Positions 3,263 to 9,931 of a stretch of DNA of 55,330 bases are shown here, piece by piece. Positions within the stretch are counted from its first letter, which is position 1. The number at the start of each line of letters is the position of its first letter. The stretch lies in assembly GCA_002840555.1 (NCBI GenBank), contig PHBJ01000017.1, forward strand, positions 1 to 55,330. Direction: 5' to 3'. Origin of the DNA: Deltaproteobacteria bacterium HGW-Deltaproteobacteria-13 (lineage in GTDB: Bacteria > Desulfobacterota > Syntrophia > Syntrophales > Smithellaceae). Under the pieces are notes generated by a model. That model was not told the origin of the DNA. It saw nothing but the letters and a program-made list of their open reading frames with translations, and searched no databases. Both the position numbers and the translations under genes were made by a program.

Positions 3263-4042
3263 TTATTGAAAAGGATCTTTTTCATCCATTTTTTCCAAAG
3301 CCAATGTCTGCTTTTCGCACTGTACGGCCGCGTTATCATCGCCGGCCTTAACGGCTTTAGGACATTTTTTCTTACCTGCGTATCCTTCATGTTCAAAAGC
3401 CAGACAGCACATCAGGCGGCCGCACAAGCCGGAAATTTTTTCCGGGTTCAGCGACATGCTCTGCTCTTTGGCCATCTTGACGGTGACTCTCTCCAGATTT
3501 TGCAGGATTCCCGCGCAGCAGACCATCCGGCCGCAAACAGCAAGGCCCTTGGTAATGCGTGTTTCCTGACGGGCTCCTATCTGTTTGAGTTCTATTCTTA
3601 TCTTGAATTTTTGAACGAGGTCTTTGACCAGTTCACGGAAATCCACTCTGCTTTCGGAGGTAAAGTAAAAAATAATTTTACTCTTTTCAAAGAGGCAGTC
3701 CACATCGATTAATTTCATGGGAAGCTCTCTCTTCTGAATCCTTTCCACACAGAACTTCCGGGCTTCCTGCTCCAACTTGTCGTTTTCTTCTTTTATCTGC
3801 AAATCCTGGGCTGTTACTTTGCGAACGACTTTTTTCAGGTTCGGCGGCAGTTCAGACGGCTGACACCTTTTTACGTCATTCGCCACAACCCCCATCGCCA
3901 GACCATTATCGGTATTGACAATCACCTGGTCATTTTTATGCAAAATAAGATCGGCGGTATTGAAACTGTATATCCGGCCCTCTTTTTTAAATTTAACTCC
4001 AATAATATTTACCAGCAATTTTTCTCCACCCTCATTTTTCAA
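3263..4042 (-). CDS. ricT: PSP1-domain protein, RicT/YaaT-like
   Basis: This 259-residue cytoplasmic protein carries the PSP1 C-terminal domain. Two conserved cysteine patches are visible, CGRMVCC and CGRLMCC, which in the RicT (YaaT) family take part in Fe-S binding within the RicAFT complex that influences RNase Y in Bacillus; the role outside Firmicutes is uncertain. It lies between holB and metG, a common order in this phylum. The start is unclear. A TTG at 4042 overlaps the holB stop by 4 nt, but a second TTG at 4018 has GGTGGAG just before it and would give a protein starting LVNIIGVKF, closer to family length. Confidence 0.88.
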   Translation of the reverse strand: MKNEGGEKLLVNIIGVKFKKEGRIYSFNTADLILHKNDQVIVNTDNGLAMGVVANDVKRCQPSELPPNLKKVVRKVTAQDLQIKEENDKLEQEARKFCVERIQKRELPMKLIDVDCLFEKSKIIFYFTSESRVDFRELVKDLVQKFKIRIELKQIGARQETRITKGLAVCGRMVCCAGILQNLERVTVKMAKEQSMSLNPEKISGLCGRLMCCLAFEHEGYAGKKKCPKAVKAGDDNAAVQCEKQTLALEKMDEKDPFQ

Positions 4043-5019
4043 TAATTTAACTTAAATGCCATTGTTTCCAAAGTCAATGATTTGTTAACATTCTGATCCA
4101 GAATCTCCCCCGCTTTTTCGACCTGTGCTATATTCTGAAGGATTTGTTCACCGGACAGACGCGAGGCACAGGCTGCGATAAATGAAGAATGATCCTGATT
4201 GATTAACATTTTATCGTGCCGGACCTCCTTGAAAACCAAAGCATCGCGAAAAAATGTCTTAAGAATATTCAATCCTTGTCTTATTTCTTTTTTTCCCTGT
4301 CCCAGAAAAGATGCGAAATTGATTAAACTGAAAGGATCCTCTGTGTGCGTCATTGAGAGCAGGCTTAACAATTCCGTGCGATAGGCAACAATATCTTCTT
4401 TATTTAATTCCAGTGCGTTCCCGATTGAACCGCCTGACAGGGCCGCCAGAAGCAAAGCCTGTTTGTTATCCATGCCCATCCGTTCGACAAGAAATTTTGC
4501 CACGGCTTCAGAACTCAGTGGATTGAAACGCATGTGCTGGCATCGCGAAACGATCGTTTGCGGCAGGGAATAAGGTCTGGCCGTGACCAGAATTAATATA
4601 TTGGACGGAGAGGGTTCCTCCAGCATTTTTAAAAGCGCGTTTGCCGCCTGGTCGTTCATCTTATCGGCATTATCAATAATAAACGCCCGTATCCTCGCTT
4701 CCAGAGGTTTGCATTTAACTCGTTTCTGAATTTCACGAATGGCGTCAATGCGAATGAACTGGCCGTCGGCTTCAACGGAAAAGATATCGGGATGGCTTTC
4801 ATGCCCGATTTTCCGGCAGGAAGCACATTCGCCGCAGGAATCGCCAAGATCATCAACCTTCTCACAGTTGAGAGCCTTGATCCATTCTCCGGCTAAAGTT
4901 CTTTTGCCGATAGCCTGACTGCCGCTGAAAAGATAGGCATGGCCTACGCGGTTTTGGGCCAGGGTTTTCCGGATAATTTCTATTTTTTTTTCATGACCGT
5001 AAATATCGCGAAAAGACAT
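4039..5019 (-). CDS. holB: DNA polymerase III delta-prime subunit
   Basis: This is a clamp-loader subunit of the AAA+ superfamily, 326 residues. It shows a P-loop-like segment (SGSQAIGKRTLA, degenerate as usual for delta-prime), a four-cysteine zinc module (Cys in CEK, CGEC, SCRK, residues ~50-70) and the conserved stretch NALLKMLEEPSP with the SRC sensor (VSRCQHMRF). It loads the beta clamp on DNA together with gamma/tau and delta. It overlaps ricT by 4 nt and follows tmk after 23 nt, so the genes are likely cotranscribed. The tmk-holB pairing is widespread in bacteria. Confidence 0.93.
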   Translation of the reverse strand: MSFRDIYGHEKKIEIIRKTLAQNRVGHAYLFSGSQAIGKRTLAGEWIKALNCEKVDDLGDSCGECASCRKIGHESHPDIFSVEADGQFIRIDAIREIQKRVKCKPLEARIRAFIIDNADKMNDQAANALLKMLEEPSPSNILILVTARPYSLPQTIVSRCQHMRFNPLSSEAVAKFLVERMGMDNKQALLLAALSGGSIGNALELNKEDIVAYRTELLSLLSMTHTEDPFSLINFASFLGQGKKEIRQGLNILKTFFRDALVFKEVRHDKMLINQDHSSFIAACASRLSGEQILQNIAQVEKAGEILDQNVNKSLTLETMAFKLNY

Positions 5020-7120: not shown

Positions 7121-8848
7121 TCAAAAAATACGCCACAAGAAAACACAAAAACCAGCTATAACATAGCTGGTTTCCAGAAGACCTTCCTTAACAGCTCCGG
7201 AAAGCACGGCTTTTTTATCACAAAATTGAAAACAAATCCATATATATAATATGCAAATAAGCAGAAAAAGACTCAACGATGGCGTCCAGCCTGCCGGATA
7301 AGAAAAAAGCAGAAGAATGAATAAAATCAATGAAATAATTTTAAGGACGGTTAAGGTCTTTGTTTTTCCGAAAAAAACAGGAATCGTTTCCTGTCCGATC
7401 AATTTATCACTTTGTATCTCCAATATATCCGACATTGCCGAACGGATAAAAACGATTCCAAAAGTAAAGCAAAAAGCAACCATTAACCCGGGATGAATGG
7501 AATCATTTTTGTCCAGGGCCGGCAGAATCGCCGCTACGATTCCCCAGGCCGCGGACATAGATATATTTTTTGAACCGGGCAAATCTTTTAAACTCCGAAA
7601 ATGCCAATGTGCCGGCAGAATATTCATATTATAAAGAACACCGGCCAGTGAAATAATAAATAAAACTGCAAAAACCGTTATCCCGTTATTCACCGCAAGC
7701 GCAAGGGCCGCGGCAATAGAAAGTAAAGCCGTGTATAAATATATTTTTTTATGCCGGTCGTAACTTTCTTCCCGAAAAGACCCGACAAGACCCGCAGGTT
7801 TTCGGGTGATCAAGCGATTTAAAACATGTATCGCATATACATAAAGAGAGGCAATCGCGATAAAAGACAGTTTCACCGTCATCCCCTGCAGCAGCATACA
7901 AACCAGGCAAAGACATCCGGCGCCGAAGGCGGAATAAAGATCAGTTTTAACGGCCGATATCCAGAGATTAAGCAGCTTACCCAGATTTTTCAACTTACGG
8001 CTTTGTCCTTCCATAATTTTGTCCATCACCCGATCGATAATCCAGTTCGGCGTGGAAGCGCCCGCCGAAACGCCGACACGATTGAATGGACCGAAATTGA
8101 TATTTTCCATTTCCGCGGGAGTTTCGATGTGAAAAGTGGAAGATTGCCGCTTTTGCGCAAGATCAGCCAGCCTTCTGGTATTGGCGCTGTTTTTTCCGCC
8201 AACGATAAACATCGCGTCCATTTCGCCGGCCATGGCAATAACTTCCGCTTGTCTTTGTTCAGTGGAAGAGCAAATCGTATTAAACACGACCGCGTGCGGA
8301 CATATTTTTTTTATTTTTTCAACAATCCTGTTGTAATTATCCCAATCCTGAGTTGTTTGAGCAACAACACAAATTTTATCAGGGCAGGACAATTTATCAA
8401 TGTCTTCCAACGTGGATACAATGATGCCCCTGCCTCCGGTGTAACCTAAAAGACCGTCAACCTCCGGATGTTGCCTGTCGCCGACGATCACCACGGTATA
8501 ATCAAGAGCGGTATGTTTTTTAATGATGGACTGCACGTAACCGACTTTCGGACAGGTCGCGTTGACTACTTTGATGCCGCTTTCTTTAATTTTCTTTCTT
8601 TCAGCCGGAGCAATGCCGTGGGCGCGAATAATCAGGATAGCGTTTTGCCTGTCTTTTATTTCTTCGATACTCTCGACAGGCTGGACGCCGCGGCTTTTGA
8701 GTAATTCAATGGTCTGCGGGTTATGAATCAGGGGACCGTAAGTATAAATACGGCGGCTGGTTTCATGCTGCGCTATATCCAGCACGATATCCACGGCCCT
8801 GCGCACGCCCATGCAAAAGCCGGCTGTTTCGGCAAGTTTAATTTCCAT
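7121..8848 (-). CDS. ispH: IspH (HMBPP reductase) fused to a UbiA-like membrane domain
   Basis: Residues 1-~285 are IspH (LytB), the [4Fe-4S] enzyme that makes IPP and DMAPP in the last step of the MEP pathway. The three cluster cysteines are Cys12 (GFCMGV), Cys99 (NATCPKVGYV) and Cys193 (NTICSSTEQRQ), and the catalytic glutamate region is RQHPEVDG. Residues ~295-575 contain about seven to eight hydrophobic segments and resemble UbiA prenyltransferases. The second Asp-rich motif is recognisable (DILEIQSDKLIGQETIP, Asp474 and Asp481), but the first motif, normally NDxxDxxxD, reads NRLIT at 344-348 with no aspartate. The membrane half may therefore not be a standard prenyltransferase. No stop or ribosome site separates the halves. 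Confidence 0.9.
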   Translation of the reverse strand: MEIKLAETAGFCMGVRRAVDIVLDIAQHETSRRIYTYGPLIHNPQTIELLKSRGVQPVESIEEIKDRQNAILIIRAHGIAPAERKKIKESGIKVVNATCPKVGYVQSIIKKHTALDYTVVIVGDRQHPEVDGLLGYTGGRGIIVSTLEDIDKLSCPDKICVVAQTTQDWDNYNRIVEKIKKICPHAVVFNTICSSTEQRQAEVIAMAGEMDAMFIVGGKNSANTRRLADLAQKRQSSTFHIETPAEMENINFGPFNRVGVSAGASTPNWIIDRVMDKIMEGQSRKLKNLGKLLNLWISAVKTDLYSAFGAGCLCLVCMLLQGMTVKLSFIAIASLYVYAIHVLNRLITRKPAGLVGSFREESYDRHKKIYLYTALLSIAAALALAVNNGITVFAVLFIISLAGVLYNMNILPAHWHFRSLKDLPGSKNISMSAAWGIVAAILPALDKNDSIHPGLMVAFCFTFGIVFIRSAMSDILEIQSDKLIGQETIPVFFGKTKTLTVLKIISLILFILLLFSYPAGWTPSLSLFLLICILYIWICFQFCDKKAVLSGAVKEGLLETSYVIAGFCVFLWRIF

Positions 8849-8981
8849 TTATTTTTTCTTCCGCGCTAAAATGAACACACCCTGTAAATATTTATGTTTC
8901 AGTTCATTGATGTCCTTCCTCCCCTGAGGGGAGGAAATCAAAAGGAGGGTGAAAAAATCTTTCTTTCCTTCCCTGTTTTGT

Positions 8982-9013
8982 CATTGCGAGACGCCTCTCA
9001 GGCGTCGCGGCAA
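8982..9013. repeat. REP-like palindrome
   Basis: ATTGCGAGACGCCT at the left and a near-complement ending GCGGCAAT at the right form an imperfect hairpin. The text 'ATTGCGAG...CGCGGCAATC' is a common extragenic palindrome style in bacterial genomes. It lies between the ispH fusion and cruF-like genes. Confidence 0.6.
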
Positions 9014-9020
9014 TCTTTCT

Positions 9021-9048
9021 TTCACTCTTCACACTTCACTCTTCACCC
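9021..9048. repeat. Heptamer repeat block 1 (TTCACNC type)
   Basis: Four consecutive 7-mers: TTCACTC, TTCACAC, TTCACTC, TTCACCC. The last unit supplies the stop codon (TGA on the minus strand, 9043-9045) of the cruF-like gene. It belongs to the family seen more fully at 15286-15560. Confidence 0.8.
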
Positions 9049-9870
9049 GTTACTTTTTAACTGATTGGACCGGCAGCCTAAGAATCCTGTAAGCGCCGCC
9101 AGCGAAAGAACGCCGCCGGTCATCAGCGCGACAAATATGATTCCCGTGTTCGCAAGAACCGCCCATGATTGAATGCATCCCACAGTGATAATCGAAGCGT
9201 AAATCAAACACGGCAGGAAAAATTCACGATCGCGGATGGCGAGGTGGGCCTTATTTCTAAAAAATATAATTCTGTATGGAACAAAGATAATGATCGTCGT
9301 AAGAAGCCATCCGAAATAGTTCTGCACGGGAATCCCATAGAAAACCGAACCGGCAGGCAGGGATTGCACGGCAGTCCATATCCATGTGCCCCGGGTCACC
9401 CATATAGGATCAATCAGCACATCCAGGGCGGTCATCGCCGCGGAATCGAGCATCGCAAAAAGAAACGGCGCGGCCCATCCCGCATAACGGCCGCCAAAAG
9501 CCGCATCCACTGTGACCGTCGAGACGTATATGAACATAAACCAGGAAAGCGGTATCAGCAGTGGAACGGTATCGAGAATTTTCATACCCAGCACATTCCC
9601 GTAATGGTACTCTCCGTAAATGAGTCCTGTTTTTACTCCCGCGTATTCCATGATAAAAGATATCACAAACGTAAGCGCCGCGAGGGAAAAGATACTTTTT
9701 CTTCCCATATACAGGCTGCCATGAAGAAGCGCAAAACAAGTGAAAATCGCGCCCATTACCATATTGTAATAATAGGGAGATGTCATTCCTGCCGCAGTCC
9801 AGGCAAGATCCATATAGGTCGAAATCAATACAACGGTTAAAAGAATATAAATTGTCTTTTTATTTTTCAT
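9043..9870 (-). CDS. CruF-like (carotenoid hydratase family) membrane protein
   Basis: This protein of about 275 residues has roughly seven to eight hydrophobic segments. The region EYAGVKTGLIYGEYHYG and the following IPLSWFMFIY and ALDVLIDPIW resemble the Carotenoid_biosynthesis family (DUF422) that includes CruF, the gamma-carotene or bisanhydrobacterioruberin hydratase. No phytoene synthase or desaturase is in the window, so the substrate is unknown. I start it at the ATG at 9870, which has AAAGGGG just upstream; the frame also extends to 9918. It lies between tlyA and the ispH-ubiA-like gene, in the isoprenoid cluster. Its last codon is followed directly by a stop inside a heptamer repeat. 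Confidence 0.75.
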   Translation of the reverse strand: MKNKKTIYILLTVVLISTYMDLAWTAAGMTSPYYYNMVMGAIFTCFALLHGSLYMGRKSIFSLAALTFVISFIMEYAGVKTGLIYGEYHYGNVLGMKILDTVPLLIPLSWFMFIYVSTVTVDAAFGGRYAGWAAPFLFAMLDSAAMTALDVLIDPIWVTRGTWIWTAVQSLPAGSVFYGIPVQNYFGWLLTTIIIFVPYRIIFFRNKAHLAIRDREFFLPCLIYASIITVGCIQSWAVLANTGIIFVALMTGGVLSLAALTGFLGCRSNQLKSNG

Positions 9871-9931
9871 CTTTCCCCTTTCCGTTTTTCCCTTTAACGC
9901 CGCAATTTTGGCGCCCATGAATGCTTGGGGG

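What the first reader, a model, noticed from the sequence alone, without database searches (positions are those of the whole stretch)
7121..8848. IspH fused to a UbiA-like membrane domain that has lost the first Asp motif
IspH (complete with its three cluster cysteines) is joined in one frame to a ~280-residue multi-span domain. The second UbiA motif is DILEIQSDKLIGQETIP, but the first, normally NDxxDxxxD, is NRLIT. The neighbour upstream is a CruF-like protein. In haloarchaea, UbiA-type lycopene elongase and CruF work together, so a membrane-bound isoprenoid process is a hypothesis. Alternatively the membrane half only anchors or channels IspH.
Basis: partly seen in the sequence, partly recalled or inferred. 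Interest (0 to 1): 0.6.

Follow-up and report, generated by a model that had tools for sequence, protein, structure and literature searches.

The report
IspH fused to an eroded UbiA domain
An essential isoprenoid-making enzyme is permanently joined to a membrane protein that resembles a prenyl-transferring enzyme but lacks a key metal-binding motif; the fusion was already in print, while the missing motif looks like a lineage-wide change that casts doubt on the role proposed for that half.

Summary
In detail: ORF 8848-7121 (minus strand, 575 aa) is a complete IspH, the only one found in the genome, joined in frame to a UbiA-fold membrane domain; motif 1 is NRLIT, motif 2 is intact. The fusion is not new: Rao et al. 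2015 (PMC4746011) described IspH-UbiA in sulfate reducers and thought prenyl transfer likely, partly from 'two DXXXD repeats'. In my 110 aligned Desulfobacterota fusions (their 47 were not checked one by one) none has NDxxD and 2 have NxxxDxxxD. The Asp that I align with AfUbiA D72, whose mutation abolishes GPP binding, remains in 45 of 60 non-Syntrophales but 6 of 50 Syntrophales fusions; an unfused relative in the same genome keeps both Asps. Yet the domain is under purifying selection and keeps Y406, H341, N344, D481 and K427. I read it as a membrane anchor with a crippled but still ligand-shaped prenyltransferase cavity, perhaps an isoprenoid sensor; altered catalysis is not excluded. A CruF-like neighbour recurs beside the fusion in several lineages, but no phytoene/squalene synthase was detected here, so a carotenoid role is unlikely. 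New variant of a known kind.

The parts
7121..8848 (-). ispH-ubiA-like fusion gene, 575 codons plus stop
   Evidence: homologous in-frame fusions
8003..8848 (-). IspH domain (residues 1-282), cluster Cys12/Cys99/Cys193 and other active-site residues conserved; only IspH match in the genome
7976..8002 (-). linker (residues 283-291), poorly conserved
7124..7975 (-). UbiA-fold membrane domain (residues 292-575), nine long helices in a low-confidence model
7793..7828 (-). eroded first Asp motif, residues 341-352 (H341, N344, R345 kept; T348 and A352 where an unfused relative has Asp)
7769..7783 (-). Syntrophales-specific loop GSFRE (residues 356-360) in place of the NDP-type loop of other fusions
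   Evidence: this loop type in 47 of 50 Syntrophales and 0 of 60 others
7568..7633 (-). conserved Y406 ... LKDLPGSK427 segment; Y406 probably equals AfUbiA Y139
   Evidence: AfUbiA and MenA mutagenesis in PMC4106721
7379..7429 (-). intact second Asp motif, residues 474-490
9043..9918 (-). CruF-like PF04240 membrane protein, directly upstream, same strand

Best explanation
IspH, the last enzyme of the MEP pathway, is held on the cytoplasmic face of the inner membrane by a fused UbiA-fold domain. That domain descends from a UbiA prenyltransferase but has lost the first Mg-diphosphate site, probably stepwise: Arg in place of the first Asp is shared with an unfused relative, the third Asp is missing in 99 of 110 fusions, and the second Asp is missing in 44 of 50 Syntrophales ones. 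Its cavity-type residues are still maintained by selection, so it most likely still binds an isoprenoid diphosphate or lipid but no longer carries out the standard two-metal prenyl transfer. Its job is then to place IspH at the membrane and perhaps to make IspH respond to the isoprenoid pool there. Shown: fusion, family and (at low model confidence) fold, motif loss, selection. Inferred: order of the losses, membrane location, loss of catalysis, ligand binding, any control of IspH.
For: Fusion conserved over the phylum: 144 of the 148 phylum genomes with the domain have it in frames of 565 residues or more (read from its table). Motif-1 counts in 110 aligned fusions: NDxxD 0, NxxxDxxxD 2; D348 in 6 of 50 Syntrophales and 45 of 60 others; D352 in 0 of 50 and 11 of 60. 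A relative in the same genome keeps NRLTDVEED, aligned at N344-A352 by hhalign (probability 98.2). Mutating N68 or D72 abolishes GPP binding in AfUbiA, and the equivalents are needed in E. coli MenA (PMC4106721, passages). The domain is still selected: NG86 dN/dS 0.113-0.225 against 0.053-0.118 for the IspH half in the 16 pairs printed. Lowest-entropy UbiA-half positions include Y406, H341, W435, D481, T488, R469, N344 and K427, besides Gly and Pro. A MenA and two weaker MenA-like UbiA proteins are encoded elsewhere. In family f50 the fused domain is further eroded (hhalign 87.4 to this family) yet kept. It can be lost: G047 and G155 have an IspH without it, and no match to the domain profile anywhere in the genome, in families whose other members are fused.
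Against: Among the best conserved positions are catalytic-type residues, including motif 2 (D481 in 108 of 110) and Y406 (109 of 110), more than a mere anchor needs. D348 survives in 45 of 60 non-Syntrophales fusions. The Syntrophales loop brings a conserved Glu (E360, 47 of 50) that could be a substitute metal ligand. R345, fixed in 50 of 50 Syntrophales, could replace a metal in binding diphosphate. The structural model is too weak to judge the metal site, and nothing here tests membrane location or activity.
Confidence: 0.5

Rival explanations
1. Active, atypical prenyltransferase fed in cis: IspH makes DMAPP/IPP and the UbiA half uses it directly, with the first metal site replaced by R345, R359, K427 or the new Glu of the GSFREE loop (the Rosetta-stone idea of Rao et al., adapted).
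For: Second motif, Y406, N344, H341 and K427 nearly invariant; new conserved loop in Syntrophales; UbiA fold; proposal in PMC4746011.
Against: NDxxD in 0 of 110 and NxxxDxxxD in 2 of 110; in AfUbiA loss of D72 abolishes GPP binding; f50 domains keep still less of the motifs; no acceptor or pathway partner recurs phylum-wide next to the gene in the 60 loci clustered.
Confidence: 0.25
2. Plain membrane anchor: the cavity is an evolutionary leftover and only tethering matters.
For: Motif loss; further erosion in f50, and in f47 a fused membrane domain without detectable UbiA similarity; missing in G047 and G155.
Against: Cavity-type residues are among the slowest-changing positions of the domain; dN/dS well below 1.
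Confidence: 0.17
3. Carotenoid (lycopene-elongase type) enzyme working with the CruF-like neighbour.
For: PF04240 within about 2 kb of the fusion in 16 of 27 genomes having both; in G186 the fusion lies near a CrtD/CrtI-family desaturase, a CruG/HpnB-like glycosyltransferase, a CruF-like gene and PF00494.
Against: No PF00494 match in the window genome; PF04240 in only 10 of 140 genomes of the class while the fused domain is matched in 128 of 140; the fusion is the genome's only IspH, so it must serve all isoprenoids.
Confidence: 0.05

Closest known systems
IspH-UbiA fusions of sulfate-reducing bacteria (Rao et al. 2015, PMC4746011)
   Same: Same architecture and order of domains; a separate MenA/UbiA elsewhere in the genome.
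   Different: They report 47 sequences with two DXXXD repeats; here 110 fusions, 50 of them from Syntrophales, with the first repeat absent in nearly all. Their own sequences were not examined here.
UbiA prenyltransferases with solved structure (AfUbiA 4tq3/4tq4, ApUbiA 4od5, DGGGP synthase 6m31/7bpu)
   Same: Fold (VIA Z 16.8 to 6m31 over 259 residues, low-confidence model), second Asp motif, conserved Tyr and Asn.
   Different: First-motif Asps missing; fused to IspH.
NR-type UbiA relative in the same genome (G000:C6, L004)
   Same: N-R at the start of motif 1, LK...KN segment, second motif.
   Different: The relative keeps both remaining Asps (NRxxDxxxD) and is not fused.
Human UBIAD1 with HMG-CoA reductase (eLife 2015, PMC4374513, abstract; PDB 8djk listed)
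   Same: A UbiA-fold protein physically paired with a flux-setting isoprenoid enzyme and responding to an isoprenoid.
   Different: Separate proteins, eukaryotic, degradation-based; the analogy is a hypothesis here.
IspH-RPS1 fusions (Rao et al. 2015)
   Same: IspH with a C-terminal partner in anaerobes.
   Different: Partner is ribosomal protein S1, not a membrane domain.

Membership tests
IspH (LytB) | Full PF02401 match with the three cluster cysteines | tested here: met
   302 bits, residues 3-278; Cys in 108, 110 and 110 of 110. Which Cys bind the cluster is recalled.
UbiA superfamily (fold) | Sequence family match and UbiA fold | tested here: met
   PF01040 above cut-off; 29 of 29 members of A1 match PF01040; low-confidence model best matched by UbiA structures
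Canonical UbiA prenyltransferase | First Asp motif NDXXDXXXD (definition in PMC4106721) | tested here: not met
   window NRLIT; NDxxD 0 of 110, NxxxDxxxD 2 of 110
Canonical UbiA prenyltransferase | Second Asp motif DXXXD | tested here: met
   D474/E477/D481 in the window (Glu at the first place of DXXXD); D481 in 108 of 110
Canonical UbiA prenyltransferase | Mg2+-dependent prenyl transfer | not testable with these tools
   needs protein
IspH-UbiA fusion of Rao et al. 2015 | IspH N-terminal, UbiA-like domain C-terminal in one chain | tested here: met
IspH-UbiA fusion of Rao et al. 2015 | Two DXXXD repeats in the UbiA domain (a property they report, not their definition) | tested here: not met
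   first repeat absent in the window protein; any DxxxD there in 9 of 110
Lycopene elongase / bacterioruberin pathway | Phytoene synthase in the genome (requirement recalled) | tested here: not met
   no PF00494 match in G000; 7 of 14 control genomes ring
Lycopene elongase / bacterioruberin pathway | CruF neighbour | tested here: inconclusive
   PF04240 directly upstream, but below the NCBIfam cut-offs of all three CruF models

The most novel reading that the evidence does not exclude
The UbiA half is a pseudo-prenyltransferase that senses membrane isoprenoid diphosphates and tunes IspH in cis, a one-chain bacterial counterpart of UBIAD1 acting on HMG-CoA reductase; in Syntrophales the metal-binding loop was rewritten into a new conserved GSFREE loop for this purpose.
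Probability: 0.18. Interest if true: 0.8.

Novelty: new variant of a known kind. Interest (0 to 1): 0.42.

Why it matters
The published account that I found (Rao et al. 2015) thinks the membrane half of IspH-UbiA is a working prenyltransferase that may also localise IspH. The phylum-wide loss of its first metal motif, with other cavity-type residues maintained, suggests instead a membrane-placed and possibly regulated IspH. If so, the last step of the MEP pathway in many Desulfobacterota is membrane-bound, and a broad set of UbiA-annotated proteins may not be ordinary prenyltransferases. It gives a direct test of how bacteria might couple isoprenoid supply to the membrane.

Tried and rejected
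AlphaFold2 on the whole fusion with 8 rows (window plus L037-L043) gave pLDDT 58.8 and a poor UbiA half; the half alone gave pLDDT 59.8 and pTM 0.58, enough for a fold comparison but not for metal-site geometry. Foldseek had no hit at E <= 0.001 (best 1.5e-3). The VIA Z values of the UbiA rows run from 16.8 down to 11.3 and overlap with soluble trans-prenyl synthases at 11.7 and less, which share the helical fold; the tool warns that Z under about 13 may mean little for helical bundles. The family profile found no PDB sequence at E <= 1.

Selection of rows. The 50 order-level fusions were kept because they aligned over more than 480 residues in one frame; L064, L065, L066, L073, L074 and L075 did not and were left out of the 110. 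The 60 phylum loci were picked from places with long frames. L031 and L175 have incomplete or odd IspH starts and L053 ends at a contig edge; they stay in the counts. Of the 148 phylum genomes with the domain, four have a frame under 565 aa: G401, G321 and G362 lie at contig ends, and G162 has in-frame stops. In one search, 129 of 140 genomes match, but G002 only through its unfused relative, hence 128. Of the 16 short or odd loci checked, L064 has IspH without the UbiA half and no tblastn remnant (E 1e-5); L065, L066, L208 and L212 show frame changes; L194 aligns end to end in one frame; the other ten are contig ends or fragments.

CruF as fixed partner: in 35 of 35 other Syntrophales loci with flanks the next of the twelve window genes upstream of the fusion is tlyA, with no CruF-like blastp hit (E 1e-4) between; G004, not among them, has one, 76.7% identical over the aligned part. 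Genome-wide, 27 genomes hold both PF04240 and the fusion where about 22 are expected from 58 and 148 of 395, so co-occurrence alone is no signal; the adjacency is. Families f25 and f69 share one divergent arrangement and may be one event. The distances are estimates from match positions.

f47 as a degenerate UbiA: hhalign gave probability 3.4, so homology of that membrane domain is not shown; it rests on position, on a few letters near motif 2, and on the IspH tree, where f47 sits with L187, whose domain does match. Single origin of the fusion is not settled: fused/unfused needs 4 changes on a quick, partly weak IspH tree, and there the f50 fusions group with unfused rows. The UbiA tree has long branches and a warning; the 10 changes of D348 counted there are rough and cannot tell gain from loss. 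Spread outside Desulfobacterota was not tested, beyond one viral-contig scan that found only an IspH match. The mapping to AfUbiA (N68=N344, D72=D348, Y139=Y406, D202=D481) is by motif and alignment, not by superposition; K146 could be K421 or K427.

Full report
What is there. The frame 8848-7121 on the minus strand encodes 575 residues. Residues 3-278 are LytB/IspH (302 bits) and 369-545 match PF01040 UbiA (49.5 bits, cut-off 34.2). It is the only IspH match in the 3.5-Mb genome, which also holds four other UbiA matches: a MenA above the TIGR00751 cut-off, two weaker MenA-like ones and one NR-type relative. The gene lies in a run xseA, ispA, dxs, tlyA, cruF-like, fusion, lipoprotein-like, nifU-like, tmk, holB, ricT-like, metG; these names rest on Pfam where I scanned and otherwise on recall. 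The seven named relatives found with the C-terminal half are four Smithella, two Syntrophaceae and one 'Deltaproteobacteria bacterium'; I call the window's order Syntrophales on that basis.

How widespread. In the relatives search P0001 aligned over nearly its whole length in 50 of 60 genomes. With a profile of the C-terminal half, 129 of 140 genomes of the class match at 1e-12, one of them only through its unfused relative, and 148 of 395 of the phylum; 144 of those 148 lie in frames of 565 residues or more. I extracted 50 distinct fusions from the order (kept by their length) and fetched 60 further phylum loci with long frames, 60 of which were fused. Among 148 genomes searched for IspH, 141 have a match; ten with long frames were fetched, and seven of them, in families f47 and f50, are IspH joined to membrane domains that the profile had missed at 1e-12, while three are unfused.

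Already in print. Rao et al. 2015 (PMC4746011; parts 1-3 of 5 and the sections on possible roles and conclusions read) described 47 IspH-UbiA sequences in sulfate reducers, noted two DXXXD repeats, thought prenyl transfer likely, proposed that UbiA localises IspH to the membrane and receives its products, with a sensor role as another possibility, and did not obtain full-length protein. A full-text search for 'IspH-UbiA' finds that paper and one that cites it (the citation seen). The listings (12 of 12 papers; 20 of 201; 20 of 166; 15 of 28; 10 of 428) showed, by title and start of abstract, no paper on the loss of the first motif; that covers part of one open-licence library only.

The first motif. 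In an alignment of 110 fusions no sequence has Asp at 345, so none has NDxxD; NxxxDxxxD occurs in 2 and any DxxxD in that stretch in 9. Asp348 is in 6 of 50 Syntrophales and 45 of 60 others; Asp352 in 0 of 50 and 11 of 60. The window protein has T348 and A352. The NR-type relative in the same genome reads NRLTDVEED, and hhalign aligns its two Asps with T348 and A352. So Arg at the first place is shared with a relative that keeps the other two Asps, which suggests that those went later. In Syntrophales the following loop is GSFRE-type (47 of 50, against 0 of 60 others) where the others have an NDP-type loop (54 of 60, against 0 of 50); R359 is kept in 49 of 50. In AfUbiA, N68A, D72A, R22A and K146A abolish GPP binding while D198A and D202A weaken it 45- and 21-fold; in E. 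coli MenA the N68, D72, D198, D202 and Y139 equivalents are needed (PMC4106721, passages).

Still under selection. dN/dS (NG86) in the 16 pairs printed, lowest IspH dS first and not independent of each other, is 0.113-0.225 for the UbiA half and 0.053-0.118 for the IspH half. The UbiA half changes faster overall (mean entropy 2.21 against 1.61 bits), but its lowest-entropy positions include, besides Gly and Pro, Y406 (109 of 110), H341 (108), W435 (108), D481 (108), T488 (107), N344 (105), R469 and K427 (100, plus 9 Arg). That is not the pattern of a decaying domain, nor clearly that of an anchor alone. That these residues line a cavity is inferred from the UbiA literature.

Fold. The UbiA half modelled without templates on 8 rows has pLDDT 59.8 and pTM 0.58. 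The first 11 Foldseek rows are UbiA-family chains, all with E above 0.001 (the two 8j8 entries are a membrane PRTase that I recall as UbiA-family). Realignment gives Z 16.8 to DGGGP synthase 6m31 over 259 residues, 14.3 to chain B of the HMGCR-UBIAD1 complex 8djk, which I take to be UBIAD1, and 14.0 to ApUbiA 4od5; soluble prenyl synthases begin at 11.7.

Further erosion and loss. In f50 (4 loci) the fused domain keeps GLKxxExDxxxG near motif 2 and nothing like motif 1; hhalign links it to this family (probability 87.4). In f47 (3 loci) an equally long fused membrane domain has no detectable similarity (probability 3.4) apart from a QTDG string that I place at motif 2. The IspH tree puts f47 among fused relatives but f50 beside unfused rows. 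G047 and G155 have an IspH without the domain, and no profile match in the genome, in families whose other members are fused. Such losses say that IspH can do without it; its wide retention says that it usually pays.

The CruF-like neighbour. PF04240 occurs in 58 of 395 phylum genomes. Of these, 27 also have the fusion, and in 16 of the 27 the two lie less than about 2 kb apart: in the window (same strand), in f29 (same strand, in a carotenoid gene group), and in f25 and f69 (divergent, 14 genomes). In the window's class it is in 10 of 140 genomes and beside the fusion in 2, G000 and G004. PF00494 is in 40 of 395 and not in the window genome; 10 of the 58 PF04240 genomes have it (searches compared). 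So the neighbourhood looks like more than chance in several lineages, yet carotenoids do not explain it here. What the CruF-like protein acts on is open.

Verdict. Observation confirmed; the fusion is known; the loss of the first motif, its likely stepwise course and the new loop are the new part as far as my searches go, and they argue against an ordinary prenyltransferase. I put a membrane-placed IspH with a crippled but ligand-shaped UbiA cavity at 0.5, altered but real catalysis at 0.25, a plain anchor at 0.17 and a carotenoid enzyme at 0.05. The boldest open reading, a cis-acting isoprenoid sensor like UBIAD1 on HMG-CoA reductase (abstract of PMC4374513), I put at 0.18, as a special case within the first.

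Noticed in passing
window 9043-9918 (-): CruF-like PF04240 gene between tlyA and the fusion, seen beside the fusion in this genome and one congener (2 of 140), in a genome without detected phytoene/squalene synthase; its substrate is unknown.
   Followed up: partly
window 8980-9014: Imperfect palindrome resembling a REP element in the gap between the CruF-like gene and the fusion; the exact pattern searched occurs twice in the genome.
   Followed up: partly
L223, L225, L231 and L224, L228, L229, L230: IspH fused to membrane domains that keep almost nothing of the UbiA motifs (families f47 and f50).
   Followed up: partly
L074 about 3275-4093 (-), i.e. G040:C32:101274-102092: A second, 36% identical IspH-like domain in a 912-residue frame in genome G040, which also has the usual fusion.
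   Followed up: no
L142 8380-9333 (-); counterpart in L145 3441-4292 (+): Near the fusion and the CruF-like gene lies a HpnG-like phosphorylase (L142: 80.9 bits, below cut-off; the L145 gene is in the same blastp cluster, not scanned), which may point to another lipid pathway.
   Followed up: no
L159 85-4002: CrtD/CrtI-family desaturase, an acyltransferase-like gene (by eye), a CruG/HpnB-like glycosyltransferase and a CruF-like gene before the fusion in one genome.
   Followed up: partly
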